DNA from: Myxococcaceae bacterium
Lineage (GTDB): Bacteria; Myxococcota; Myxococcia; Myxococcales; Myxococcaceae
Assembly: GCA_019694595.1 (NCBI GenBank)
Contig: JAIBBQ010000060.1
Coordinates: forward strand, 1-32,152
Reading direction: 5' to 3'
Length of the DNA: 32,152 nt
Shown: positions 11,530 to 32,152 of the stretch, in pieces
Numbering within the stretch: the stretch's first letter is position 1
Layout of the letters: each line of letters opens with the position of its first letter
Made by a program: the position numbers and the translations under genes
The notes under the pieces: model-generated
Told to the model about the DNA's origin: nothing
The model's database searches: none
The model's input: only the letters and a program-made list of their open reading frames with translations

Positions 11530-11737
11530 GGGCGGCTCCGCAAGGAAAGCGTGGTGGTCGTCGGAGGTGCGCCCCGACACGGAGTTGTCGCGCGCCCGGC
11601 CTTCTCGGATTCTGAGAGAAAGAGGTCGTTCGTTTCCAAGGGGTGGCTCGACTGCCGCGAGCCCCTGAGACGACAGAAACACATGAATTGATTGTTGTTT
11701 TATCGCCTGCAGGGGGGAAGACCCGGCGAAACCAGGT
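11530..11737 (-). promoter_or_regulatory. AT-richer leader region upstream of the small helical gene
   Basis: No gene is seen here. The stretch 11686-11711 is the most AT-rich pocket of the window. Within the likely 5' leader of the 11529 gene are a hairpin at 11639-11666 (GCTCG paired with CGAGC, extended by AGGG/CCCT) and an inverted repeat TTCTC...GAGAA at 11602-11620. On the minus strand TTGGAA-N19-CAGAAT is a poor sigma-70-like candidate. Together these suggest the promoter and leader of the downstream gene; none is certain. Confidence 0.3.
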
Positions 11738-12000
11738 CTGGCGGGGTCCGGCGCGCCGAGGCGACTCGAAGACCGAGCGCAGGGCTGGCTCCCGCTCTTG
11801 CCCGCTCCCGAGGAGCGCCCGGCCGTAGGCGAGGAACGCGTCCTCCTTGGACGTGGTGGCGTCGCCCAGCGCGTCGCGGTCCTCCTTCGAGGCCCCGGGC
11901 CGAACGGCGGTCGCTCGCGCAGACTCGAGGCGCTCCAGCGCATCGGCGTAGGCAGTGGCAGTTGGCGCCAGCGGGCCAGCGTTCTCGGAAGTCGGGTGAC
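11738..12000 (-). pseudogene. Decayed second copy of the small helical gene
   Basis: Reading the minus strand gives AYADALERLESARATAVRPG, then DRDALGDATTSKEDAFLAYG and SVFESPRRAGPRQ. These align across the whole core with the neighbouring gene at 11176-11529 (AYADALERAEAARVTANRPG, DRDALGEANKAKNDAFQAYA, SLFEPPKRGGPRLS). The copy lacks a recognisable start region matching MSITKFPPINH and has lost the stop codon: the frame runs on past it for about 300 unrelated codons. It is therefore read as a remnant of a tandem duplication. An expressed variant with a different N-terminus is possible but unsupported. Confidence 0.65.
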
Positions 12001-12093
12001 TTGGCGCACGCCCACCGTCACCCCTGCGGCCCCACTGCTGCGTGGCGCGCGACACCGTGGCGCCGGGCGTCACCTGGCCCGATACTCCGCGCC

Positions 12094-12735
12094 ATGAGCG
12101 CCCCCGAAGACGACGTGGACCAGGAGCGCCGCGTCCTGGTGCAGCGGCTGACGTTCCTCGGCGGCGGCGTGGTGCTCCTCGGCGGCTGCAAGAAGGACGA
12201 GCCCGCCCAGGCCCCTGCCCCCAAGCGCCCGGCGCCCCCGACCACCAGCCACCTCACCTTCACCGACGAGGAGTACCGCGTCCTCGAGGCGGCCTGCGAG
12301 CGGGTGCTCCCGCAGGACGAGGCGCCCGGGGCCAAGGCGCTCGGCGTGCCGGGGTACGTCGACCGCATCCTGCAGACGCCCGAGCTCTCGCGCATGAAGG
12401 ACGACTTCCCGCCCGGGCTGATGGCGCTCGACCGGCGGGCGCTGCGCCTGTTCGGCCACGGCTTCCCCGACTGCACCGCGGCCCAGCAAGACGAGGTGCT
12501 CACCGCGTTCAAGGACAGCCCCGAGGCCTCGGGCGAGGCGCGCTGGTACGAGATGCTCGTCGTGCTCACCCTCGAAGGCGCGCTGGGCGACCCCAGCTAC
12601 GGCGGCAACAAGGACCGCGCCGGCTGGGCGCTCATGGGCTTCACGCTCGTGGGCACCGCCGCCGCCGAGCCACCGCCGGACTACGACGGGCGCAAGGCGC
12701 TGCACGTGCGCTGCGGCGACGGCAAGGGCTGCTGA
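12094..12735 (+). CDS. Gluconate 2-dehydrogenase subunit 3-like lipoprotein
   Basis: The 213-residue protein matches the small-subunit family that accompanies membrane GMC dehydrogenases (Gluconate_2-dh3). It has the segment FTDEEYRVLEAACERVLPQD and the conserved VPGYVDRIL, followed by helices ending in YGGNKDRAGWALMGF. The N-terminus has twin arginines ahead of a hydrophobic stretch (ERRVLVQRLTFLGG) and a lipobox (LLGGC), so it may be a Tat-exported lipoprotein that carries its partner across the membrane. The stop overlaps the start of the GMC gene (TGATG), which supports a two-subunit enzyme. ATG 12094 is the only start that includes the twin-Arg region. Confidence 0.85.
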   Translation: MSAPEDDVDQERRVLVQRLTFLGGGVVLLGGCKKDEPAQAPAPKRPAPPTTSHLTFTDEEYRVLEAACERVLPQDEAPGAKALGVPGYVDRILQTPELSRMKDDFPPGLMALDRRALRLFGHGFPDCTAAQQDEVLTAFKDSPEASGEARWYEMLVVLTLEGALGDPSYGGNKDRAGWALMGFTLVGTAAAEPPPDYDGRKALHVRCGDGKGC

Positions 12736-14396
12736 TGCCGAACGACCCGGTCGACGTGGTGGTGGTGGGCAGCGGCGCCGGCGGCGCGCCGATGGCGCTC
12801 GAGCTCGCGCGCGCGGGCTTCTCGGTGGTGGTGCTGGAGAAGGGCGCGCACTACCAGCCGAAGGACTTCCTCCACGACGAGATCCTCAACAGCCGCCGCA
12901 ACTTCTTCATGCCCCTGCCGTGGGACGAGCCCCACTTGTGGCGCAAGGGCACCGACCAGCCGTTCGCCCGCACCAACGAGGCGTGGACCGCCAACTGCGT
13001 GGGCGGCGGCACGGTGCACATGAGCGGCTACTTCTACCGGATGAAGCCGGTGGACTTCCGGCTGCGCACCACGCTCGGCGAGGTGAAGGGCGCGTCGCTG
13101 GCCGACTGGCCCATCGAGTACAAGGACCTGGCGCCGTTCTACGACGTGGCCGAAGCCGAGCTCGGCGTCTCCGGCAACGCGGTGCCGCACCCGTTCCTCG
13201 AGCCGCGCAGCAGAAACTTCCCCCTGCCCCCGCTCGACGAGCACCCGGTCGCCAAGGCCATCGACGACGCGGCGAAGGGCCTGGGCTGGCATCCGCTCCC
13301 CACCGCACGCGGCATCCTGAGCCAGCCGTACCAGGGGCGCGCCGGCTGCTCGTACTGCACGCTCTGCGGCAGCTACGGCTGCGAGCACGGCGCCAAGGCG
13401 AGCACCAACGCCTCGGTGATTCCCAGGGCGCTGGCCACCGGCAAGGTCACCCTGCGGCCGCGCTGCATGGCGACCGAGGTGACGGTCGACGCCAAGGGCA
13501 ACGCGAAGAGCGTCATCTACAAGGACCCCGACGGGGTCACCCAGGAGCAGAGCGCCAGGGTGGTGGTGCTCTCGTGCACCGCGGTGGAGAGCGCGCGGCT
13601 GATGCTCAACTCGGTGTCCGCCCGGTTCCCCAAGGGCCTCGCCAACGGCAACGGCCTGGTGGGCAAGAACCTGGTCTTCTCGAGCTTCGGGCAGTCGAAG
13701 GCGACCTTCCGGGTGTCGAAGAGCGCGGGCAAGCGAGCGTGGATCGACAGCCAGGCGCCCTTCGTCAACCGCAGCCTGCAGGACTTCTACCTGATGCCCG
13801 ATGCGCGCTTCGGCTTCCGCAAGGGCGGCACGCTGGGCTTCATGTGGCAGCACCCCAACCCCATCTTCGCGGCGGTGGGACTGGCCAAGAAGGGCAAGGA
13901 CGGCGTCTTCGGCAAGGCGCTGAAGGACAAGCTGCGCGAGTACAAGGACAGCCGCATCCTGGAATTCGAGATCTACGGCGAGTTCCTGCCCAACCCCGAC
14001 ACTCTGGTCACCGTCGACGCCAAGGTGAAGGACCGCTACGGCCTCCCGGTCGCCGCCATCACCGTGAAGCGGCACCCGGTCGACCTCACCATGACCAAGT
14101 TCCTCGTCGAGCGCGGCGAGGAAGTGCTCGCGGCGCTGGAGCCCGACGCGCTCGAGCGCGTGGGCGTGGCGGGCGAGACCACCATTCTCCAGGGCGGCAC
14201 CTGCCGCTTCGGCAAGGACCCGGCGGCTTCGGTGCTCGACGCCGAGTGCCGAGCCCACGAGGTGAAGAACCTCTACGTGGTCGACGGCAGCTTCCTCCCT
14301 TCGTCCGGAGGCGTGCCGCTGACCCTCACCATCGCCGCCAACGCGTTCCGGGTGGGGGCGGCCCTCGTTCGCCGGTTGAAATCCGGCGGGCTGTAG
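12735..14396 (+). CDS. GMC-family FAD oxidoreductase, catalytic subunit
   Basis: This 553-residue flavoprotein would oxidise an alcohol or sugar and pass electrons onward with the upstream small subunit. The FAD-binding GSGAGG is at 12-17 with the ribose-contacting Glu at E35, and CVGGGTVHMSGYF (88-100) is the second GMC flavin motif. A Cys cluster, C205, C208, C211 and C216 (GCSYCTLCGSYGC), matches gluconate-dehydrogenase-like members and could bind an iron-sulphur centre. The C-terminal GMC block is present (GTCRFG 488-493; YVVDGSFLPSSGG), but the usual catalytic His before GTCR is L485 and the usual Asn/His before PTLTI is replaced (VPLTLTI). The start codon overlaps the preceding stop. 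No cytochrome c subunit is nearby. The substrate is unknown. Confidence 0.9.
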   Translation: MPNDPVDVVVVGSGAGGAPMALELARAGFSVVVLEKGAHYQPKDFLHDEILNSRRNFFMPLPWDEPHLWRKGTDQPFARTNEAWTANCVGGGTVHMSGYFYRMKPVDFRLRTTLGEVKGASLADWPIEYKDLAPFYDVAEAELGVSGNAVPHPFLEPRSRNFPLPPLDEHPVAKAIDDAAKGLGWHPLPTARGILSQPYQGRAGCSYCTLCGSYGCEHGAKASTNASVIPRALATGKVTLRPRCMATEVTVDAKGNAKSVIYKDPDGVTQEQSARVVVLSCTAVESARLMLNSVSARFPKGLANGNGLVGKNLVFSSFGQSKATFRVSKSAGKRAWIDSQAPFVNRSLQDFYLMPDARFGFRKGGTLGFMWQHPNPIFAAVGLAKKGKDGVFGKALKDKLREYKDSRILEFEIYGEFLPNPDTLVTVDAKVKDRYGLPVAAITVKRHPVDLTMTKFLVERGEEVLAALEPDALERVGVAGETTILQGGTCRFGKDPAASVLDAECRAHEVKNLYVVDGSFLPSSGGVPLTLTIAANAFRVGAALVRRLKSGGL

Positions 14397-16273: not shown

Positions 16274-16783
16274 TCAGGTGCCGTCCTGGCCCTTGAGCCG
16301 CAGCGGGGTGATGTCCACCTTGAGGAGGTAGTTGGCGCGGGCGTCGGACTCGACCTCGAGCAGGTGGTCGCCCACCCCCGAGAGGTCGGCGCTGCGGAAG
16401 ACGGTGCCGTTCTGCTCCGCTTCGCCCACGAAGGTGCGGCCGGAGACGGCGACGCGCACCCGCGAGCGGCAGCGCTCCTCGAAGAAGGTGAGCACCGTCT
16501 GGTCGCCCGCCCCCGAGACCTGGTCGAGCAGGAAGGTGAGCTTCACCGTCGCCGGCTCGAAGAGCTGGATGCCGAGCTGCCGCTTCCCGGGGAACCGGCC
16601 TTCCAGGTAGCTCTTGTCGCCCACCAGGCAGCCGGCGATCTCCGAGCAGATGGGCCACTCGCCGCCGCAGGTGTCCTGCACCCGGGTCCCGATGAACTCG
16701 GCCCGGGGGTTGCTGCACGCAGCAACGCCCATCAGGAGCGCCGCCTGCGCTAAAAGCCCCGCCATGCTCCGAGCCACCCTCAT
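16274..16783 (-). CDS. Lipoprotein of unknown function, 5' end overlapping a divergent gene
   Basis: The 169-residue protein begins MRVARSMAGLLAQ and has the lipobox GVAAC. The mature region carries five further Cys (for example DTCGGEWPIC and EERC) and is otherwise beta-rich; no family was recognised. ATG 16783 is preferred because GGAG lies 6 nt upstream and it gives a basic n-region. The alternative ATG 16765 has GGAG only 1 nt away. With either start, the coding region overlaps the divergent gene at 16764, so neither gene has its own upstream non-coding space. Confidence 0.75.
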   Translation of the reverse strand: MRVARSMAGLLAQAALLMGVAACSNPRAEFIGTRVQDTCGGEWPICSEIAGCLVGDKSYLEGRFPGKRQLGIQLFEPATVKLTFLLDQVSGAGDQTVLTFFEERCRSRVRVAVSGRTFVGEAEQNGTVFRSADLSGVGDHLLEVESDARANYLLKVDITPLRLKGQDGT

Positions 16784-17210
16784 CGCGGTCTCCATTGTCG
16801 TCGGCTGTGCGGCCTGTGGGAAGGGTGAGGATCCACTTCCCGCCAAGCCCCAGCTCAAGCTCGACCGCGACTCCATCGGCTTCGGCCAGGAGTTCAACAG
16901 CGGCACCTACATCGGCCAGTCGCCGCTGCAGTCGCTGCGGCTGGAGAACGCGGGCCAGCAGGACCTGACCATCTCCTCGGTCACCTTCATGGGGCCTTCG
17001 CAGTTCGCCTTCTCGCAGCCGCCGAAGACGACGCTCAAGTCGAAGGAATACACCTACGTGCAGCTGAGCTTCACCCCCACCGAGGCCAAGATCTACGAGG
17101 GGACGCTCACCATCGTCAGCAACGCCGACAACACGCCGATGAAGGCGGTGAAGATCTCCGGCCGCGGCATCGCCCCGCCAGACGCCGGCGTCAGCGACGG
17201 CGGCATGTGA
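16764..17210 (+). CDS. Lipoprotein with ASH/choice-of-anchor-D-like domain
   Basis: The 148-residue protein starts MLRATLIAVSIVVGC, a lipobox-like VVGC with lipidation at C15. The mature part is a single beta-sandwich: KLDRDSIGFGQEF opens it, SLRLENAGQQDLTI is the central strand pair and GTLTIVSNADNTP then VKISGRG closes it. This is the pattern of ASH/SPD-2/Hydin or choice-of-anchor D domains, which in bacteria are surface protein modules. It ends with Asp/Gly-rich tail residues. ATG 16764 is the only start that retains the signal; no good ribosome site precedes it. Its start codon lies inside the 5' end of the divergent gene. Confidence 0.8.
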   Translation: MLRATLIAVSIVVGCAACGKGEDPLPAKPQLKLDRDSIGFGQEFNSGTYIGQSPLQSLRLENAGQQDLTISSVTFMGPSQFAFSQPPKTTLKSKEYTYVQLSFTPTEAKIYEGTLTIVSNADNTPMKAVKISGRGIAPPDAGVSDGGM

Positions 17211-19237: not shown

Positions 19238-21457
19238 CTACGGGTTGAAGGTGAACTGGCACCCGGCGTCTCCCGCCGGCACCGCCGGGCAGCTGAACGC
19301 CCCGCCGTCGACCGAGTAGCCCTGCGGGTACGCCGCCACCGACTGCCGCAGCGTGTAGCGCAGCGGCGCGTTGGTGTTGCGGTCCACCGCGGCCACGCGC
19401 ACCGCGTAGTGGGTCGAGCGCACGAAGCGCGGCTCGAAGCAGAAGCAGCCCACCGCCTGCGCGGTCACCGTGGTCGACCCGCTGCCCTTGTTGCGGTCCC
19501 ACAGCACCTGCCGGTCGGTCAGCACCTTGCCGTACCAGGGCATCAGCCGGTCGGGCTGCCAGGCGAGCGGCTGCACCGGGCCCGCGCACGTTCCGCCGTC
19601 GTTCGGCGTGCGGTCGGCGTCGCACCACTCGACTTCCAGCACCAGGTCGCCCGGCACGTCACCTGCGTCGGCGTCGTGCTGGATTTCCCACTGCAGCGCC
19701 CAGGTGCGGTCGAAGGGCGCCGTCTGCCCGCCGGGGAAGTCGAACTCGAAGCGGTCCACGTCGCTGGGGAAGGCGTCGTAGTCGTTGGGCCCGCGGATGC
19801 CTTCGCCCCTGTCGATGTCTTCCGGGGTGCGGTTGATGAGCCGGCCGTAGCCGTACGTCAGCACCCCGGTCACCTGGCCGCTCATCGACGGCACCGGGAA
19901 GCTCCCCGAGCTCAGCGCGGCCACCTGCGTCTGCCCCGGCAGACCGAACCGCGTGGCGTCGTCGGGGTCGGCCTCGTAGGAGACCTGCAGCGCGTAGTCG
20001 ACGTCGTCGGCGTAGTCGTTGCCGTCGTCCTGCACGACGAGGAAGTAGCGCGCGGTGCCCGAGTGCGCGGGGATCGGCAGCGCCCCTTCCACGTTGCGCA
20101 GGTTCTTGAAGGTCACTTCCTCGTCGCGTTCCGCCAGCAGGCAGAGCGGCGGGTCCTGCGCCTTGCACAGCCCCTGCACCAGGCCTTCGGCGAGCGAGGC
20201 CGGCTCGTAGCCCTTGGGGCACAGCGTCGAGTTGGTGAGGCAGGCCACCTGCCGGTCCTGCGTCGTCGCCCCTTGCGTCACCTGCGTCAGCACCCGCACC
20301 TGCCGGTCGGGAAGGAGCGCCAGCGGGGCGAAGCGGCCGGGCCCCATGCCGCCGTTCAGCTTGTACCGCAGCACCGTGGGCACGCTCGACGGCGCGAGGT
20401 CGAGCGCGAAGATGTCCGGGTCGGGCACGTAGCCCAGCCGGCCGGTGATGCTCTGGCTCGCCCCCACGCCCATCGCCACCACCTTGGGGCTGGCGAAGGT
20501 GTCGTTGGGCTCCTGGGTGTCGAGGTCGTCGAAGAGCTTCACTTCGAGCGTGTACTTCTCGCGCAGGTCGCCCGGCACCGGGCCCGGCTCGTTGGCCGCC
20601 AGGTAGCCCTTCACCACCACCGTGTACTTGCCCGCCGTCGACAGGCGCGCCGTCGCCAGGTCCACCGCGTTGGCGCCCGCGCGCACCACGCCTTCGCTCA
20701 CCTGGATGCCCGCGGGGTCGAGCAGCACGTAGCTCGCGCGCAGCGGCGGCGCGGGCGTCAGCGCCGGCGCGGTGAGGTGGAGGTAGATGATCTTGCGCCC
20801 CGCGGGCGCGGTGAAGGTGAACTTGTCGACGTCGTTCTCCGTCGCCAGCGCGCCCTGCGCGGTGCCCACCTGCGCCGCCCCCATCGCCATCAGCGGAATG
20901 TCGGTGGGCGTGGTGTCGTTCGGCTCGTTCAGGTCGGGGTTGTCCAGCACCTCGACCTTCACCGTGTACGGGCTGCGCACGTCGATGTGCGGCTGCTGCG
21001 TCGCCATCTCGTCGCCCAGCACCAGCAGCACCTTCGCGTTGCTCTTGGAGTACGGAATGATGAGCTCGACCGGCCTGGGCGCCATCTGCCCGTGGCGGTC
21101 GATGGCCCGCCCCACGCCCGTCTTGCCGTCTTCTTCCAGCACGCTGACCGCCAGGTTCACCGGCGTGTTCTGCGCCGCGTAGCCGGCGGTGACGTGCAGC
21201 AGGCTGCGGCCGGTCAGGTTCCCCGGCAGCGCGGCCGAGTACCAGTCGGAGTCCTGCGCGACCGAGATGTACCCTTCCTTCGCCGTGCCCAGCGTCAGCT
21301 GGCACTGGGCGTCGTTCAGCGCCTCGTCGCGCGAGTTGCACACGTCGGGCGGCACGCCGCCGTCGGTGCAGTCGTCGACCTCGGGGTCGCACGCCGGCGC
21401 CGACGGAGGACAGGCACACAGCACCATCGCCACGGCGGCCAGGAAAACGCGTCTCAT
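19238..21457 (-). CDS. Cys-rich exported protein with repeated PPC-like domains
   Basis: The 739-residue protein begins MRRVFLAAVAMVLCAC, a signal with Cys at 14 and 16 that may be lipidated, followed by more Cys within residues 23-52. It repeats bacterial pre-peptidase C-terminal (PPC)-like beta-sandwiches: EPND motifs at 178-181 and 316-319, and the paired strand signature D-x-D-x-[FY] at DSDWY (69-73), DVDKF (209-213) and DPDIF (346-350), with another DVDRF later. PPC modules normally sit at the ends of secreted peptidases; here there is no peptidase. AAGGAG lies 6 nt before ATG 21457 and overlaps the stop of the upstream VWA gene, so it is the last gene of the VWA operon. Confidence 0.82.
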   Translation of the reverse strand: MRRVFLAAVAMVLCACPPSAPACDPEVDDCTDGGVPPDVCNSRDEALNDAQCQLTLGTAKEGYISVAQDSDWYSAALPGNLTGRSLLHVTAGYAAQNTPVNLAVSVLEEDGKTGVGRAIDRHGQMAPRPVELIIPYSKSNAKVLLVLGDEMATQQPHIDVRSPYTVKVEVLDNPDLNEPNDTTPTDIPLMAMGAAQVGTAQGALATENDVDKFTFTAPAGRKIIYLHLTAPALTPAPPLRASYVLLDPAGIQVSEGVVRAGANAVDLATARLSTAGKYTVVVKGYLAANEPGPVPGDLREKYTLEVKLFDDLDTQEPNDTFASPKVVAMGVGASQSITGRLGYVPDPDIFALDLAPSSVPTVLRYKLNGGMGPGRFAPLALLPDRQVRVLTQVTQGATTQDRQVACLTNSTLCPKGYEPASLAEGLVQGLCKAQDPPLCLLAERDEEVTFKNLRNVEGALPIPAHSGTARYFLVVQDDGNDYADDVDYALQVSYEADPDDATRFGLPGQTQVAALSSGSFPVPSMSGQVTGVLTYGYGRLINRTPEDIDRGEGIRGPNDYDAFPSDVDRFEFDFPGGQTAPFDRTWALQWEIQHDADAGDVPGDLVLEVEWCDADRTPNDGGTCAGPVQPLAWQPDRLMPWYGKVLTDRQVLWDRNKGSGSTTVTAQAVGCFCFEPRFVRSTHYAVRVAAVDRNTNAPLRYTLRQSVAAYPQGYSVDGGAFSCPAVPAGDAGCQFTFNP

Positions 21458-21468
21458 GCCCTTCTCCT

Positions 21469-23259
21469 TCACTGCTGCGGCCCGCACCCCAGGATGAAGT
21501 CTTCCGGCTTCACCGTCACCACCCCGTCGACGGGCAGCTTGATGCCGCCCACCGGGTAGCGCGGCAGCTGCGTGCGGAACGAGCGAATCACCGTGCGGCC
21601 GGTCGGGTCGTCACCCGGCTTCATCGCCGTCGACAGCCACACGTCGTTGTAGCCCGCGGCCCGGCGGAAGAGCGGCGCCCCGCCGTCGGGGTTGCCCGCG
21701 TCGCGGGTGTCGCGAATCGTCGGCGCCAGGAGCACGTTGTCCACGCGGAAGTGGAAGCACTGCCGGCCCTGGTCGTCGAGCGGGCCCGAGCGCACCAGGC
21801 CGTAGCGGTAGCCCTGCGCGGTGAGCTTGGCGTTGTCCACCGTGTGCGGGTCCATGTGCATCAAGAGCTCGTCGTGGTTCGACAAGCCATCGGTGTCGGG
21901 GTCCTGCCCCAGGTCCTTGCCCGACGGCTGGGTCTGCATCTGCCACTCGACCATGTCGGGAATGCCGTCGTCGTCGGAGTCCACCCGCTGGGCGTTGGTG
22001 CCGATGATCTGCTCGTCGCAGTCGAGCAACCCGTCGCAGTCGGTGTCCACGCCGCGCAGCGCCGGAGGACAGCCGGGGTCGAGCCCGCCGCCGTCGGGCA
22101 GCGGCATGTTGTTGGGCGTGAAGGCGCCGCCCAGCGCGCGGAAGTGCACCTCGACGCCGTCGGAGAAGCCGTCGCCGTCGGTGTCCCGCACCCAGGGGTT
22201 GGTCATCTCCGTGGCCTCGTCCTGGTCGGACAGGCCGTCGCTGTCGGTGTCGGCCTGGTCGTCCGGCGAGCCGGGCAGCGCGGAGAAGTTCGAGGCCACC
22301 AGCGTGTCGAGCTCGAAGGTGCGGCGCACCTGCCCGAAGCGGAAGTTGAGGAAGTTGATCGGCTCGTTGTTGCGGAAGTCGCGGAAGTCGCCGCCGCCGA
22401 TCTCCGACATCTTGAGCAGGCGCTCCGCGTCCTGGTTCACCTGCAGGAGCGGGCAGGCCCCGGGCGGAATGATGGGAATGCGGCAGGCGCTCCCGCCCAC
22501 CGGCCCGGTGCCGCCGTCGATGTCGCACTTGGTCGAGTCGATGGGCTGGGTCGGGCGGAACACGTGCACCGTGTTCACCTTCACGTCGTCCGCCAGGTCC
22601 TTCAGCTGGCGCACCCGGCGCACCGCGTCGCCGCAGAGCAGCTCGTCGTCCTGGTTGTTGGTGGGCTCGCCGTCGGACAGGAAGATGACCGAGTAGCGCG
22701 CGCGGGTGTCGTTGGCGGTGTTCTTGGTCATCAGCCGGGTGTTGGCGATGTCGCGGCTGATGATCTCGTAGATGTCGGCCAGCGGCTTCACGAAGTCGGT
22801 GGAGTCGCGGTTCGCCATGGTGCCCGGCGCCGCGAAGTTGAGCAGCCGCTGCTCCAGCGCCTGCTTGTCGGCCGGCGTGTAGTCGATGAGCCGGTCGAAC
22901 TGCCCGAGGCCCGTCTTGGTGAGGTACGCCGAGGTGCTGCCGGCGAAGAGCATCACCAGGAGCGAGATCTCCGGGTCCTGCGGCAGCGTGTTCATCAGCT
23001 CGACCAGCGCGGTGGCGCGCGAGCCACCCGGGTCGGTCTTGATCATCGACTGCGACGCGTCCATCGCCAGGAGGATCTTGATCGGCCGCACCACGTCGTT
23101 GGTCGACGGGGTGCAGAAGTCGCCGTCCAGCGCGATGGCGCGGTCGGCGGGCAGTTTGTCGAGCCGCCGCTCGTCGTACAGGTACGTGTCGGTGCACGCA
23201 CCGGTCACCAGCGCGAGGAACGCCAGCGCCGAGGCGATGCGCACTGCCCTCAATCTCAC
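21469..23259 (-). CDS. VWA-TSP3 surface lipoprotein (second paralogue)
   Basis: The 596-residue protein has a lipoprotein-like signal ending at C22 (LVTGAC). Its von Willebrand factor A domain keeps the MIDAS metal site D67-A-S69-Q-S71 and the later LSDGEP (D195). After about residue 335 come Asp-rich calcium loops of TSP3 type: DTDSDGLSD, DTDGDGFSD, DTDCDGLLD, DSDDDGIPD and DPDTDGLSN. The C-terminus shares a box with its two paralogues (GRQCFHFRVDNVLLAPT) and ends VKPEDFILG. GTG 23259 overlaps the stop of the upstream VWA gene (GTGA); GTG 23244 is an alternative start. A ligand-binding adhesin role at the cell surface is inferred from the domain types. Confidence 0.86.
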   Translation of the reverse strand: MRLRAVRIASALAFLALVTGACTDTYLYDERRLDKLPADRAIALDGDFCTPSTNDVVRPIKILLAMDASQSMIKTDPGGSRATALVELMNTLPQDPEISLLVMLFAGSTSAYLTKTGLGQFDRLIDYTPADKQALEQRLLNFAAPGTMANRDSTDFVKPLADIYEIISRDIANTRLMTKNTANDTRARYSVIFLSDGEPTNNQDDELLCGDAVRRVRQLKDLADDVKVNTVHVFRPTQPIDSTKCDIDGGTGPVGGSACRIPIIPPGACPLLQVNQDAERLLKMSEIGGGDFRDFRNNEPINFLNFRFGQVRRTFELDTLVASNFSALPGSPDDQADTDSDGLSDQDEATEMTNPWVRDTDGDGFSDGVEVHFRALGGAFTPNNMPLPDGGGLDPGCPPALRGVDTDCDGLLDCDEQIIGTNAQRVDSDDDGIPDMVEWQMQTQPSGKDLGQDPDTDGLSNHDELLMHMDPHTVDNAKLTAQGYRYGLVRSGPLDDQGRQCFHFRVDNVLLAPTIRDTRDAGNPDGGAPLFRRAAGYNDVWLSTAMKPGDDPTGRTVIRSFRTQLPRYPVGGIKLPVDGVVTVKPEDFILGCGPQQ

Positions 23260-25330: not shown

Positions 25331-25356
25331 AGACCCGCGCCTCTACGCGCGGGTCT
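25331..25356 (-). promoter_or_regulatory. Perfect 10-bp hairpin with the stop codon in its loop
   Basis: AGACCCGCGC (25331-25340) pairs without mismatch with GCGCGGGTCT (25347-25356). The TAG stop of the MYXO-CTERM gene lies in the 6-nt loop and the last codons form one arm. It may protect the mRNA 3' end or act with the terminator just downstream. Confidence 0.6.
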
Positions 25357-26662
25357 GCTTGCGGCGGCGCAGCAGCGAGAGCGCCGCCAGGCCGAGGCCC
25401 CAGAGCGGAGCGCCGAGGCCGGTGATGCTGCAGGCGCCGGAGTGACCCGAGCCGCTGCCGGTCCCCGCGTTGAGCGCCAGGGTGGAAGTCGACGAGTCGG
25501 CGTTCGGGTAGGTGCGGTCGGGGAAGACCAGCTTGCCGGACAGCTGGAGCTGGTACTCGCCGTCGACGTCCGCGGTGAAGCTCGGGACCTTGCCGTCGAC
25601 GTACGCGTACTCCCAGTGACGGCTGAGGCTGACGCCGCCCTTGGGGTTCTCGATGGCCGACGACGAGCCGTCCGGGCGCTTCACCACCGTCCACTGGTAC
25701 TCGATGGCGGTGTTGTTGCGGTTGGCGAACAGCGGGAGCCGGAACTTCTCACCCTTCTGCAGGGTGATGAAGCCGCCGCCGTGCACGCGGAACGGGCCGT
25801 TGGGGTCGAGGCAGTCTTCCTTGTTCGCCGGGTTCACCACCACGCAGTACTTGGGGTCGCAGAGATCGCCGAGGCCGTCGCCGTCGTCGTCGACCTGGTC
25901 GCGGTTCACCTTGCCCTGGCAGTTGTCGGCCTTGTTGAGCAGGCCGTCGTTGTCGATGTCGGCGTCGCAGAGGTCGCCCTGGCCGTCGTTGTCGGTGTCG
26001 GTCTGGTTGGTCGACGCGATCGACGGGCAGTTGTCGTAGTTGTCGCCGATGCCGTCTCCGTCCGTGTCCTTCTTGCAGACCGCGCCGGTGGGCATCACCT
26101 GGTCGGTGTTGGCGACGAGCGGGCAGTTGTCGACCGCGTCGGCCACGGTGTCGTTGTCGTCGTCACCGTCGCAGAGGTCGCCCGAGCCGTCGCTGTCGTT
26201 GTTCGCCTGGTCCTTGTTGGGGACGAGCGGGCAGTTGTCGGCCGCGTTGGCGATGCCGTCGCCGTCGGCGTCGTCGTCGCAGAGGTCGCCCTTGCCGTCG
26301 CCGTCGCTGTCGAGCTGCGACATGTTCGCCGCGCCCGCGCAGTTGTCGCACTGGTCGCCCACGCCGTCGGAGTCGCCGTCGAGCTGGTCGCGGTTGGACA
26401 CGAACGGGCAGTTGTCCTTGTCGTCGCTCTTGCCGTCGCCGTCGGCGTCATCGGTGTACGCCAGCGTCTTGCCGTCGTCGGTGTAGGCCACCCACACCGA
26501 GCAGCCGCAGCCGCACCCGCAGCCGCCGCCCTCTTCCTTCGGGGTGCCGCACTGCGAGCCCAGGCACTCCGGGTTCTGTCCATTGCCCAGCTGCGCGAAG
26601 GCCGGCGCCGCGGCCAGCGCTGCAGCAACCAGCATCAACCGCGAGGTTCGCATCAAGGTCAT
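25343..26662 (-). CDS. TSP3-repeat surface protein with MYXO-CTERM-like anchor
   Basis: The 439-residue protein has a signal peptide (RLMLVAAALAAAPAFA) and a Cys/Gly stretch (GGGCGCGCGCS, 47-55). A thrombospondin type 3 array spans about 72-269, with Asp-rich calcium loops and Cys at TSP3 spacing, for example DADGDGKSDDKDNCP and DTDGDGIGDNYDNCP. A beta-sandwich (about 290-398) of PKD/Ig character follows. The C-terminus has the layout of MYXO-CTERM sorting signals: a Gly/Ser linker, C411 in GACS, a hydrophobic helix (about 416-431) and RRRK. In Myxococcus such tails are processed for display on the cell surface. ATG 26662 is chosen for the GGAGAGAG upstream. Confidence 0.88.
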   Translation of the reverse strand: MTLMRTSRLMLVAAALAAAPAFAQLGNGQNPECLGSQCGTPKEEGGGCGCGCGCSVWVAYTDDGKTLAYTDDADGDGKSDDKDNCPFVSNRDQLDGDSDGVGDQCDNCAGAANMSQLDSDGDGKGDLCDDDADGDGIANAADNCPLVPNKDQANNDSDGSGDLCDGDDDNDTVADAVDNCPLVANTDQVMPTGAVCKKDTDGDGIGDNYDNCPSIASTNQTDTDNDGQGDLCDADIDNDGLLNKADNCQGKVNRDQVDDDGDGLGDLCDPKYCVVVNPANKEDCLDPNGPFRVHGGGFITLQKGEKFRLPLFANRNNTAIEYQWTVVKRPDGSSSAIENPKGGVSLSRHWEYAYVDGKVPSFTADVDGEYQLQLSGKLVFPDRTYPNADSSTSTLALNAGTGSGSGHSGACSITGLGAPLWGLGLAALSLLRRRKQTRA

Positions 26663-26726
26663 TGGTCTCTCTCCGAAGGAAGGCTGCACTGGACCCATTA
26701 GCAACCTCCGATCCACTGGCCTGCCG

Positions 26727-26824: not shown

Positions 26825-28393
26825 TCAGGAGCCCAGGACGAAGTCGTCCGGGGTGACCTGGATGATGCCCTTCGGCTTCTTCTTGTTGGGCGGGGTGAAC
26901 TGGATCTGCTGGAGGAACAAGGTGCCGATGCCGGTGCCGCGGGGGTCGTTCTCCCGGCCCACCTGGAAGTACAGGTAGAGGTCGTTGGTGCCCTTGGGAA
27001 TGTCGGGGTACGGCGGGTTCGGCCGGCGCAGCGTGGGCACCAGGCTCAGGTTGTAGGCGGTGATGTCGTAGCAGGCGCGCCCGTCGGCGAGCGGCGGCGC
27101 GTCCTTGATGAAGTACCCGTAGCCGCGGTCGGCCTGGTACGCGAGGTCGGCGGACTGGGTGTCGGTGTGCTCGAGCACCTCGTCGGCGTTGGTGCGGCCG
27201 TCGCGGTCGTCGTCGTTCAGGTCCTCGGGCAGGAGCGGGTTGGTGCCGCCGAGGAGCTCGACGAGGTCGGGCAAGCCGTCGCCGTCGGTGTCGGAGATGC
27301 AGGCGTCGGTGCCCAGCACCCGCTCCTCGCAGTCGTTCAGGCGGTCGCCGTCGGTGTCCAGGGTGGGGTTGCAGCCCTGGATGGTGTTGAGCGTGAGCGG
27401 GTCCAGCCCCATGCGCCGCTCGAGGCCGTCGCCCAGGGAGTCGTCGTCGGTGTCGTACTTCACCGGGTCGGTGCCCTGCTCCTTCTCGACGTCGTCGGGA
27501 AGCCCGTCGCCGTCGGAGTCGACCAGCAGCGCGCCGTGGCGGGAGATGGCGTTGCGGTTGAAGGCGATGAGGCGCTTCAAGATGAGCGAGCGCTGGAGCG
27601 AGGCGTAGTTGAGCGCGTTCATCGCCATCTTCACGCCGTCGGGCGTGGTCTCCACGAGCTCGGTGCCGCCGGAGCGGGCGATGGCGGCGGCCTGGAAGCG
27701 GGCGGTGACGTCGGCGGTGGTGCGCACGTAGACCGGCTGCACCGAGACTTCGCCGGCGTTGTACTGGGTGGCGAGCGCCTTCAGCGCCTCGGTCTCGCGC
27801 GAGAGCTCGCAGCTGGTGCACTCGGCGGGGCTGGCCGCCATCTGGCACTTGGGGTCGATGTTGGCGTTGAACGACGGGTTGTTGCAGGAGTCGTCGGCGT
27901 TGGCGATGACCACCACCACGAGGTAGCGGGTGCGGGCGACCTGGCCGCGGCAGCCGGTCTGCATGTCGCCGGACACCAGGCTCTTGGCGAGGCGCAGGGC
28001 CGAGCGCACCGAGATGGGGCCCGCTTCCTGGTAGCTCGAGTACTTGGCGAGCGCGGTGGTGAGCGTGGTGCCGTCGGAGAACTGGCCTTGGAGGCCGGTG
28101 GCGACGGAGTGGTAGGCGATGAAGCCGAAGCTGGTGGAGCTGCCGGTGAAGCGGGCGCTCACCGCGGTGAGTGCGTCGGCGAGCTGGCCGACGACCAGGC
28201 GGTCGATGCCGGCCCCGCCCTGCACGGCGAAGAGCACCTTCACCGGGAACTGGTCGCCCGCGGCGAGCGGGACGCAGGCGCGGCCGGTGATCTCGGCGCG
28301 GTCCGGTCCTTCGACGCCTCCGGCGCCGGCGGCATAGAGCCCGGCGTCGGTGCAGGACACCACGGCGAGCACGATGGGGATCAGCCGCTTCAA
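26825..28393 (-). CDS. VWA-TSP3 surface lipoprotein with degenerate MIDAS (third paralogue)
   Basis: The 522-residue protein has a compact lipoprotein signal (MKRLIPIVLAVVSC, C14). The VWA-like domain aligns with its paralogues (FPVKVLF versus FPVKVLF), but the metal-binding DxSxS reads Q58-G-G-A-G and the later TDG/SDG is replaced by IANADDS, so it should not bind metal in the usual way. It keeps DxDxDG calcium loops from about 292 on (DSDGDGLPD, DTDDDSLGD, DTDGDGLPD) and the shared box DGRACYDITAYNLSLV (437-452), ending VTPDDFVLG. TTG 28393 is chosen because it starts the signal exactly; GTG 28459, overlapping the previous stop, would add 22 unlikely residues. No clear ribosome site is seen. 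Confidence 0.82.
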   Translation of the reverse strand: MKRLIPIVLAVVSCTDAGLYAAGAGGVEGPDRAEITGRACVPLAAGDQFPVKVLFAVQGGAGIDRLVVGQLADALTAVSARFTGSSTSFGFIAYHSVATGLQGQFSDGTTLTTALAKYSSYQEAGPISVRSALRLAKSLVSGDMQTGCRGQVARTRYLVVVVIANADDSCNNPSFNANIDPKCQMAASPAECTSCELSRETEALKALATQYNAGEVSVQPVYVRTTADVTARFQAAAIARSGGTELVETTPDGVKMAMNALNYASLQRSLILKRLIAFNRNAISRHGALLVDSDGDGLPDDVEKEQGTDPVKYDTDDDSLGDGLERRMGLDPLTLNTIQGCNPTLDTDGDRLNDCEERVLGTDACISDTDGDGLPDLVELLGGTNPLLPEDLNDDDRDGRTNADEVLEHTDTQSADLAYQADRGYGYFIKDAPPLADGRACYDITAYNLSLVPTLRRPNPPYPDIPKGTNDLYLYFQVGRENDPRGTGIGTLFLQQIQFTPPNKKKPKGIIQVTPDDFVLGS

Positions 28394-28863: not shown

Positions 28864-31095
28864 CTACAGGCACATCACGAACGCCAACACATCCGCCTGC
28901 TCCTGCGGCGTGAGCCCATCCGCCCTCCCATGCTTCGGCGCATACGCCATCACCGCCCGCGCCAGCGGGAACCTGTCGCTCACCTTCACGGCCCCATCCT
29001 CCCGCACGCTCAACCCCGCCAGCCCCGTGGTGAGCATCGGAAACACATCCCACGCCCCGAGGAGCGACGGCGGCGCGAACCCGGAGAAATGAGGATCCTG
29101 CTGCTTCTCCCTCAGCGGAAACAGATGCGGCGTCCCCACATCGATGAACCTCCCCCTCGTCTCTCCCTTGGCATCGGTGGTGAACCCCGGCCACGGGTGA
29201 CACTCCCCGCACTGCGCCTTCCCTCCGAAGAGCGCCGCGCCGGCGCGGGGGTGCCCTTCCTGCCCGTTGGGCAGGGTGAGCGTCTCCGGCAGCCCCGCGC
29301 TCAGGAACGGGTTGGGGAGCGTGAGCACCCCTGCGCTGTACGTGGTGAGCGCGTCGATCTCCGCCTCGGTGGGGTCCGGGTTGTGGAACCGGTTCCTCCC
29401 TCCGACGACCTTCGCGGTCTCCGCCAGGCTGCGGGTCGACGCGGGCGTGAAGTACGGCGGGCTGTCCCGCGTGCCGCGCACGGTGGGCACGCGGTAGACG
29501 CGCAGCGGCTGCGTCTTCTCGAACATGATGCCGCCGGTGTGGCCGGCCGGGTGGCACGCGTCGCAGCTCATCGCGGTGCGGCCGAGGTCGGCGAAGTAGA
29601 GGACTTCCCCGAGCCGGCGCGTGGGCTGGGTGAGCATCGGAGCGAGCGGCCACTGGGTGACCAGGGCGGCCTTCTTCTTCGCGGCGCCGCGCACGTCGAC
29701 CACCGCGACGGTGCCGGTGAAGCGGTCGAGCACGGTGAGCCGCTCGCCGAAGAGCCACAGCGCGGCGGGCCCGGAGTGGAGCGAGAGGCCGGCGCGGCCC
29801 TTCTCCCCGAAGTCCGCCTCGGGGCGGATGCGCGGGAAGTCCGCGGGAGGCGGAATCGCGAGTTCCTGCAGCAGCGCCTGCGACGGGTCGGCGGACAGGA
29901 GCTTCTTGAGGTCGAGCACCCTCACCAGCCCCAGCGAGACGTCGGCGGCGTAGACGAGCCCCTTCGCCTCGTCGACGGCGAGCGCCTGGGTGACGCCGGC
30001 GCCGAAGCCCAGGTGGTGGCGCACCTCGAGCGGCCCCAGCGCGGCGACGGTGACGCCGCCGTTCATGCTCACTTCCATGCGCAGGGCGTTGGGGCCCACG
30101 TTGGGGCCGATGGTGGCCAGCAGCGCGCGGCCGGCCTTGGGCGCGACGGCGATGGCGCGCACGCCGCTGCCGTTCATCACCTGGGCGGAGAAGGCCGCGG
30201 TGCCGCCGCCGAAGATGGGCGTGCCCGGCCCGGGCTCCGCGGAGCCGTGCACCAGGCCGTCGGCGAGCGCCAGCGTCTCCAGCTCGCCGGTCTGCATCGA
30301 GCCCACCAGCAGCGCGTCGCCCGCCACCGCGAGGGCCTGGGGGTTGGGCGCCACGGGGGTGCGCCACCGTTCCTTCCCCGAGGACAGATCGATGGCGCTC
30401 ACCGAGTCGCGCGCCTGCTCCGCGAGGTAGGCGACGCCCTGGTGCACCACGAGCGCGCTGGCCGACGCGGGGGCGGCGAGCGTGCGGCCTGCGCCGCCGT
30501 CGAGCGGCAGCACCCGCAGCTCCGGCGCGAAGCGGTGGGCGACCACCAGCTGCGGCCCCGCGTCCGACGGCCAGACGGCGAGCGCCACCGGCCCGTCGCC
30601 CACCGGGAAGCGGCGCACGCCGCCGTCGCGCAGGTCGAGGCCCAGCACCGCGTCCTCGCCCTGGGAGGTGGTGAACACCTCGTTCCCCGAAGGAGCACCG
30701 GCGAGGCCCGCGGGGGTCACGAAGCCGACGTCGTCGACCACCTGCAGCCGCACGCCCCCGTCGTCGTCGGACAGCCGCAGGGTCCGCGCGCCTTCGCCCG
30801 ACGGCGACGGCGGCACCGGGAGCCCCGCGGGAATGCGGGCCAGCGCGTGCTCCTCGTCGAGCACCTCGAGCGTCAGGGGCTCGCCGTCGAGCGTGAGGGT
30901 CAGCCCGGGCCGCAGCGCCTCGCCGGTGAGCCACACCCAGCTCGCGGTCTGGTTGCTGACCGCCCGCGGGCCGACGTCGAGCAGCCGGGGCCCGCCCGGG
31001 CGCGCCGCGGCAGCCCCGGCATCGGGCGGGGCCGACGGCGGCCTGGGGCAGGCGGTGAGCGCAAGGAAGAGGACGAGGACCCAGGGGGAGCGCAC
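28864..31095 (-). CDS. IPT/TIG - beta-propeller - di-haem peroxidase (MauG/CCP-like) lipoprotein
   Basis: The 743-residue protein has a lipoprotein signal (WVLVLFLALTAC). After a Pro/Ala tether, an IPT/TIG beta-sandwich lies at about 45-103. A YVTN/YncE-like propeller spans about 145-490 (for example GDGPVALAVWPSD and VLDRFTGTVAVVDV). The C-terminal third is a di-haem cytochrome c peroxidase/MauG-like domain with two CxxCH haem c motifs, C511-D-A-C514-H515 and C629-G-E-C632-H633. It probably acts outside the cytoplasm, using haem to oxidise a partner or peroxide. GTG 31095 is chosen because it begins the signal; TTG 31116 is an upstream alternative. The substrate is unknown. Confidence 0.86.
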   Translation of the reverse strand: MRSPWVLVLFLALTACPRPPSAPPDAGAAAARPGGPRLLDVGPRAVSNQTASWVWLTGEALRPGLTLTLDGEPLTLEVLDEEHALARIPAGLPVPPSPSGEGARTLRLSDDDGGVRLQVVDDVGFVTPAGLAGAPSGNEVFTTSQGEDAVLGLDLRDGGVRRFPVGDGPVALAVWPSDAGPQLVVAHRFAPELRVLPLDGGAGRTLAAPASASALVVHQGVAYLAEQARDSVSAIDLSSGKERWRTPVAPNPQALAVAGDALLVGSMQTGELETLALADGLVHGSAEPGPGTPIFGGGTAAFSAQVMNGSGVRAIAVAPKAGRALLATIGPNVGPNALRMEVSMNGGVTVAALGPLEVRHHLGFGAGVTQALAVDEAKGLVYAADVSLGLVRVLDLKKLLSADPSQALLQELAIPPPADFPRIRPEADFGEKGRAGLSLHSGPAALWLFGERLTVLDRFTGTVAVVDVRGAAKKKAALVTQWPLAPMLTQPTRRLGEVLYFADLGRTAMSCDACHPAGHTGGIMFEKTQPLRVYRVPTVRGTRDSPPYFTPASTRSLAETAKVVGGRNRFHNPDPTEAEIDALTTYSAGVLTLPNPFLSAGLPETLTLPNGQEGHPRAGAALFGGKAQCGECHPWPGFTTDAKGETRGRFIDVGTPHLFPLREKQQDPHFSGFAPPSLLGAWDVFPMLTTGLAGLSVREDGAVKVSDRFPLARAVMAYAPKHGRADGLTPQEQADVLAFVMCL

Positions 31096-31311
31096 GGCCG
31101 GGCTCGTACCAAACAACCGCCGCGAAGCCTTCGGGTGATTCCTCGGACCGGGCGCGCCCCGGGGAGAGGAACGTTCGGGCCCGGGCGCTTGTCAGGCTCT
31201 GGGATGCTGCCCAAGCGCACACACGCCCGGGTCAGGTGCGACCGCGACCGACACGTGGGCTGTTCAACTTCCGCGACCCGGCCGGGATTCGTCGCTACAC
31301 TTCGCCGCCGT
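31096..31311. other. Divergent intergenic region, promoters not resolved
   Basis: These 216 bp separate the di-haem gene from the divergent small exported protein gene and should hold both promoters. A GC-rich inverted repeat, CCGGG-CGCGC-CCCGG, lies around 31148-31162. TACACT at 31296-31301 resembles a -10 box for the plus-strand gene but has no -35 at the right distance. No gene was found here. Confidence 0.4.
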
Positions 31312-31692: not shown

Positions 31693-32152
31693 GTGAGCGG
31701 GCAACCCTCGGTGCTGCAGGTCGTGATCCTGCGCGACGGGCTCCTGGTGGGCACGGAGGTCTTCGTGCCGGGCCAGTACACCCTCGGCAGCGACCCCGCG
31801 TGCGAGCTCAAGCTCGACGACGGCAGTGTCGGCGCCAAGCACGCCAAGCTCTACTTCCAGAACGGCAAGGCGGCCATCCAGGACCTGGGGGCCCCCACCG
31901 GCGTCTTCGTCAACGGTCACCGCGTCACCGCCTGCGAGGTCCGCCCGGTCGACGAGATCGCCATCGGGCCGTTCTCTCTCAAGACGCGCGTCATCCAGCA
32001 GAAGGCTGCGCAGAACGCGCCGCCGCCCGAGGTCGCCGCGCTCCTCGGCGCGCCGGGCGAGGCGCCCGGCCAGGCGCGCCCGCCGCCGCAGGGCCGCGCC
32101 CCCGTGCCTTCCACCGTGGTCTCGGCCCGCCGCCTGGCCGCGGTGGCCCAGC
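31693..32152 (+). CDS. FHA-domain protein, N-terminal part (cut by window end)
   Basis: GTG 31693 opens a frame that runs off the window after 153 codons. Residues about 7-98 form a forkhead-associated beta-sandwich: YTLGSDPACELKLDDGSVG, KHAKLYF, DLGAPTGVFVNGHRV and PVDEIAIGPFSLKTRV. The structural Gly, His and Asn are kept, but the pThr-contacting Arg after Gly is Ser (LGS) and the Ser-Arg of SRxH is Gly-Ala-Lys (GAKH), so phosphothreonine binding is doubtful. A Pro/Ala/Gln-rich linker starts near residue 105. It may be a GltG/NfsG/AgmX-like gliding or spore-coat protein, but the diagnostic C-terminus is outside the window. Confidence 0.8.
   Translation, partial: MSGQPSVLQVVILRDGLLVGTEVFVPGQYTLGSDPACELKLDDGSVGAKHAKLYFQNGKAAIQDLGAPTGVFVNGHRVTACEVRPVDEIAIGPFSLKTRVIQQKAAQNAPPPEVAALLGAPGEAPGQARPPPQGRAPVPSTVVSARRLAAVAQ

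What the first reader, a model, noticed from the sequence alone, without database searches (positions are those of the whole stretch)
26825..28393. Third VWA paralogue has lost the MIDAS metal site
The first two paralogues keep D-x-S-x-S (DESGS, DASQS) and a T/SDG motif; the third has QGGAG and IANADDS at the same points after the same FPVKVLF strand. Its calcium loops and C-terminal box remain. This points to a structural or decoy partner alongside two metal-binding VWA proteins.
Basis: partly seen in the sequence, partly recalled or inferred. Interest (0 to 1): 0.6.

Follow-up and report, generated by a model that had tools for sequence, protein, structure and literature searches.

The report
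Metal-less third VWA cohesion protein
One of three sister surface proteins in the myxobacterial cell-cell cohesion (mts) locus has lost the metal site that its sisters keep; the loss is ancient and conserved across the phylum Myxococcota, which suggests it has a structural, non-binding job in the complex.

Summary
Confirmed and extended. The minus-strand gene 26825-28393 (TTG start) encodes a lipoprotein with a VWA-fold domain (AlphaFold model, VIA Z up to 19.7), TSP3 calcium repeats and a C-terminal box. All three MIDAS loops are changed: QGGAG for DxSxS, Ile for Thr, no Asp-Gly. The next two VWA paralogues keep the full site. The cluster is the known mts cell-cell cohesion locus: NCBIfam names neighbours MtsC and MtsD above cut-off. 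In 21 orthologues outside the window's clade the MIDAS Thr is always Arg and the first Asp is kept. In the window's clade (30) both are gone together, replaced by an invariant Gly-Gly, with an invariant Ser and Asp in the other two loops: the pocket was rebuilt, not left to decay. Most likely a metal-independent structural subunit beside two metal-binding VWA lipoproteins; that role is inferred. Secondary lead: a GltG-like FHA/AgmX-tail protein lies within 8 kb in 13 of 24 genomes (0.9 expected), and ExbB-ExbD-ExbD genes follow class C in four.

The parts
26825..28393 (-). Class C VWA-TSP3 lipoprotein (P0001), the MIDAS-less paralogue; by gene order probably MtsB (letter not verified)
   Evidence: ORF and lipobox; orthologues 34-66% identical in related genomes
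27590..28267 (-). VWA-fold domain (mature residues 30-255)
   Evidence: AF2 model pLDDT mostly 80-90 here; VIA Z 19.7 to Mfa5 VWA, 18.6 to vWF A1, 18.4 to an integrin I domain
28208..28222 (-). Loop 1: QGGAG in place of DxSxS
   Evidence: Gly46-Gly47 invariant in 30 of 30 of this clade
28010..28021 (-). Loop 2: GPIS, Ile in place of the MIDAS Thr, invariant Ser115 next to it
27887..27907 (-). Loop 3: IANADDS in place of (T/S)DG; Asp154 invariant
27170..27520 (-). TSP3 (calcium-loop) stalk
   Evidence: PF18884 38.8 bits, 3 stretches
26828..27169 (-). Shared C-terminal box
   Evidence: alignment of the three paralogues
25343..26716 (-). MtsC: six TSP3 repeats, MYXO-CTERM-like tail
   Evidence: NF047638 599 bits, cut-off 350; PF02412
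23256..25244 (-). MtsD (class A): VWA with intact MIDAS, TSP3
   Evidence: NF047639 1046.5 bits, cut-off 800; DESGS/TDYQ/TDG
21469..23244 (-). Class B VWA-TSP3 lipoprotein with intact MIDAS (by order probably MtsE)
   Evidence: DASQS/STDF/SDG; orthologues in the same place across the phylum
19238..21457 (-). Large lipoprotein; PPC domain in a distant homologue (by order probably MtsF)
   Evidence: gene family F2, in 16 loci, next to class B where both are held; PF04151 in the L127 homologue
28864..31116 (-). Upstream lipoprotein: beta-propeller plus c-type haem motifs (by order perhaps MtsA)
   Evidence: sub-threshold PQQ_2 and cytochrome c matches; upstream of class C in most Myxococcaceae loci and near the cluster in L131
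31693..32151 (+). Start of the divergent FHA protein (GltG-like family), cut by the contig end
   Evidence: FHA-type matches; family F3; AgmX-tail protein near class C in 13 of 24 genomes

Best explanation
The gene encodes the third VWA-TSP3 lipoprotein of the mts cell-cell cohesion locus, a conserved pseudo-VWA without a canonical MIDAS. Shown: the VWA fold is kept; the loss is old (the paralogue's stem) and universal in the orthologues examined; two states exist, one with Thr replaced by Arg and the third-loop Asp lost, and one, in the window's clade, with the first Asp and that Arg both absent. Inferred: the Arg stands in for the metal by pairing with the remaining Asp, which locks the pocket. 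Inferred: the protein acts at the outer membrane as a metal-independent scaffold or partner subunit, while the MtsD and class B VWA domains do the metal-dependent binding and the TSP3 stalks hold the domains rigid with calcium.
For: MIDAS counts: class A 33/33 and class B 34/34 intact, class C 0/51; first Asp and Arg present together in 21/21 and absent together in 30/30. The tree puts all class C on one side of a branch (SH-aLRT 94; 61 with the MIDAS loops masked) and the xGG set together (100). VWA fold Z 19.7. Gly46, Gly47, Gly112, Ser115 and Asp154, all in the three pocket loops, are among only 29 invariant columns of 278. MtsC and MtsD named above cut-off; MtsC also above cut-off in distant families. 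Cluster content and order conserved. Class A is found in 114 of 195 genomes and class C in 107 of the same 114; no genome has C without A. A held paper ties the locus to cohesion, S-motility and development (PMC11980579).
Against: Metal binding and interactions were not measured. The model's coordinates could not be inspected, so a metal held by Ser115 and Asp154 is not excluded. The change in the window's clade is one event on the tree, so the joint absence of Asp and Arg is a single observation. Class C monophyly has only modest support once the loops are masked.
Confidence: 0.66

Rival explanations
1. The pocket was rebuilt to bind a different ligand or a non-canonical metal, so the domain is still a receptor, not a scaffold.
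For: The pocket loops hold invariant Gly46-Gly47, Ser115 and Asp154 in 30 of 30 clade members although most of the domain varies.
Against: The first metal position varies freely (Glu, Gln, Pro, Val, His), both loop-1 serines are gone, and Asp154 lies three residues past the canonical place. In the other class C proteins an invariant Arg sits at the Thr place.
Confidence: 0.2
2. Relaxed constraint: the domain lost function and its MIDAS is decaying.
For: Loop-1 sequences outside the window's clade vary widely (DTSGS, DTSAE, DGSGP, DQAAG).
Against: Arg is invariant in 21 of 21 and Gly-Gly in 30 of 30; the gene is kept with its cluster (107 of 114 genomes with class A) and other positions of the domain are conserved.
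Confidence: 0.06
3. Decoy: a non-binding copy that competes with the two binding paralogues for partners.
For: Shared architecture, anchor and locus with an altered site.
Against: No direct evidence; about 30% identity to the paralogues and class-specific conserved residues point to its own interface rather than mimicry.
Confidence: 0.08

Closest known systems
Mts cohesion locus of Myxococcus (MtsC NF047638, MtsD NF047639; Zhang et al. 2007, J Bacteriol 189:7937, not held here)
   Same: Same locus: neighbours pass the MtsC and MtsD equivalog cut-offs, in order
   Different: No curated model for the class C protein; no description of its MIDAS loss was found in the papers that could be searched
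CglB, VWA lipoprotein adhesin of Myxococcus gliding (from memory)
   Same: Outer-membrane VWA lipoprotein in myxobacteria
   Different: CglB is, from memory, a working VWA adhesin; the only NCBIfam gliding match of the window protein is CglD over the TSP3 repeats
VWA domains without a working MIDAS: vWF A1 and A2, TFIIH p34/Tfb4 (metal state from memory)
   Same: Same fold, Z 17.7-18.6; used for protein contacts without metal
   Different: No sequence relation beyond the fold (9-15% identity); different systems
CglD gliding lipoprotein (NF033765)
   Same: TSP3 repeats match (30.8 bits)
   Different: Far under the cut-off of 400; match confined to the repeats

Membership tests
VWA fold | Rossmann-like alpha/beta VWA fold | tested here: met
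   Foldseek and VIA, Z up to 19.7 over residues 30-255
VWA with MIDAS | DxSxS, Thr and Asp in three loops | tested here: not met
   All three changed in the window protein; 0 of 51 orthologues intact
VWA with MIDAS | Binds a divalent metal | not testable with these tools
   Needs a structure or calorimetry
mts cohesion locus | MtsC neighbour | tested here: met
   NF047638 599 bits, cut-off 350
mts cohesion locus | MtsD neighbour | tested here: met
   NF047639 1046.5 bits, cut-off 800
MtsD equivalog | Score above 800 bits | tested here: not met
   Window class C 106 bits, over the TSP3 and following region only
CglD | Score above 400 bits | tested here: not met
   30.8 bits
mts cohesion locus | Needed for cohesion | not testable with these tools
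   Known for the locus from a citing paper; not shown here for this gene

The most novel reading that the evidence does not exclude
Mts is an energised trans-envelope adhesion machine that works like the Agl-Glt gliding complex: a GltG-like FHA/AgmX-tail protein and, in some lineages, an ExbB-ExbD-ExbD motor act on the outer-membrane VWA lipoproteins, with the MIDAS-less class C protein as the force-bearing linker between motor and the two metal-binding adhesins.
Probability: 0.15. Interest if true: 0.75.

Novelty: new variant of a known kind. Interest (0 to 1): 0.55.

Why it matters
The mts locus has been tied to cohesion, social motility and development in Myxococcus, without a mechanism that I could find. 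A clear division of labour (two VWA lipoproteins with an intact metal site, one without, kept across a phylum) gives a testable model of how the complex is built. Arg in place of the MIDAS Thr, present with the first Asp and absent with it, is also a clean natural case of a metal site being replaced.

Tried and rejected
Class assignment by best score alone was unreliable for distant genomes (L068 and L120 were mis-sorted at first); gene order and the tree settled it. My first reading that L068 might be an orthologue with an intact site fell: loop 1 is DTSVS, but the Thr is Arg and the third-loop Asp is Asn. Seven genomes have class A but no class C hit (G002, G006, G013, G026, G098, G102, G156); they do not show loss of C, since in each the class A or partial C match lies near the end of a contig, as far as positions and contig lengths were seen. 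The MtsD model was predicted poorly (pLDDT 53.6), so pockets were not compared structurally. No solved structure is close by sequence. Literature searches for a described MIDAS loss, and for the mts paper itself, found nothing held.

Full report
Observation. After the strand FPVKVLFAV comes QGGAG (28208-28222) where the paralogues have DESGS and DASQS, and IANADDS (27887-27907) where they have TDG and SDG; the loop-2 Thr (TDYQ, STDF) is Ile in GPIS (28010-28021). Pfam finds only TSP3 repeats in this protein, but a VWA domain above cut-off in the first paralogue.

Fold. AlphaFold2 with 16 orthologues gave mean pLDDT 68.7, mostly 80-90 in the VWA part. Foldseek and VIA-align place residues 30-255 in the VWA fold, Z 19.7 to the Mfa5 tip protein, 18.6 to vWF A1 and 18.4 to an integrin I domain. 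The three changed stretches fall after strand 38-45, before the helix at 116, and after the strand at 143-150, that is, in the three MIDAS loops.

What the locus is. NCBIfam names the next gene MtsC (599 bits, cut-off 350) and the one after it MtsD (1046.5, cut-off 800). [quoted passage not shown] 2007 (PMC11980579); that paper itself is not held. By gene order the window gene is probably MtsB and the class B gene MtsE; this is inference. MtsC also passes its cut-off in distant families (479-579 bits), so the locus is spread over the phylum.

Orthologues. In Myxococcaceae and at least one further family (L065) the order is class C, MtsC, MtsD (class A), class B, large lipoprotein; in L066 and L067 the same without MtsC between; in more distant families class C lies after the large lipoprotein. 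Class A hits occur in 114 of 195 Myxococcota genomes and class C hits in 107 of the same 114; no genome has C without A. Some weak class C hits in distant genomes may be to the paralogues, so these counts are approximate there.

MIDAS states. On 118 non-identical proteins, class A is intact in 33 of 33, class B in 34 of 34, class C in 0 of 51 (L120 moved from B to C on its neighbours and tree position). Class C falls in two types. In 21 proteins of other families the first Asp is kept, the Thr is Arg in all 21, and the third-loop Asp is replaced (Asn, Ala, Ser, Gly, His or Glu) in 20 of 21. In 30 proteins of the window's clade the first Asp is Glu, Gln, Pro or Val (His in a related locus) followed by an invariant Gly-Gly, and the Arg is absent. 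The tree puts class C on one side of a branch (SH-aLRT 94; 61 with the MIDAS loops masked) and the Gly-Gly type together (100). The simplest history: one loss at the class C stem, a second remodelling in the window's clade.

Not decay. Of 278 well-filled columns in the Gly-Gly type only 29 are invariant, and Gly46, Gly47, Gly112, Ser115 and Asp154 of the pocket loops are among them. A rebuilt pocket for another ligand or metal is therefore a live rival.

Mechanism. Inferred: a metal-free VWA subunit serves as scaffold or partner, with MtsD and class B as the metal-dependent binders and TSP3 stalks stiffened by calcium. The Arg-Asp pair as a stand-in for the metal is a hypothesis from their co-occurrence, which is one evolutionary event.

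Neighbours. A protein with an FHA-type N-terminus and the AgmX/PglI tail (NF033768), GltG-like but far under the GltG cut-off (127-152 bits against 650), lies within 8 kb of the mts cluster in 13 of 24 genomes; 0.88 expected, P about 3e-13 treating genomes as independent, which related genomes are not. In one of these (G163) the protein also carries a kinase domain. In L068, L118, L132 and L135 the class C gene is followed on the same strand by an ExbB and two ExbD genes. The window's own FHA gene starts at 31693 and is cut by the contig end. This suggests, but does not show, a link to a trans-envelope motor.

Noticed in passing
window 31693-32151 (+): Divergent FHA-domain gene, cut by the contig end; its family carries the AgmX/PglI tail and recurs beside the mts cluster across the phylum.
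   Followed up: partly
L068 2257-3995, L118 11334-13118, L132 4346-7092, L135 3164-4961: ExbB-ExbD-ExbD sets (one TolQ-like, two TolR-like, as in AglRQS) after the class C gene on the same strand.
   Followed up: partly
window 16277-16801 (-): Small lipoprotein of an unnamed family that recurs near the mts cluster in 14 loci.
   Followed up: partly
window 11692-14396 (+): GMC oxidoreductase with a small partner gene; the pair recurs near the mts cluster in four loci from different families.
   Followed up: no
window 28864-31116 (-): Lipoprotein with beta-propeller and haem-type motifs (CDACH, CGECH) beside a cohesion locus, adjacent in most Myxococcaceae; its role there is unclear.
   Followed up: no
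genome G103, contig C342, 8514-9996: The class C gene appears split into two adjacent matches in one fragmented assembly.
   Followed up: no
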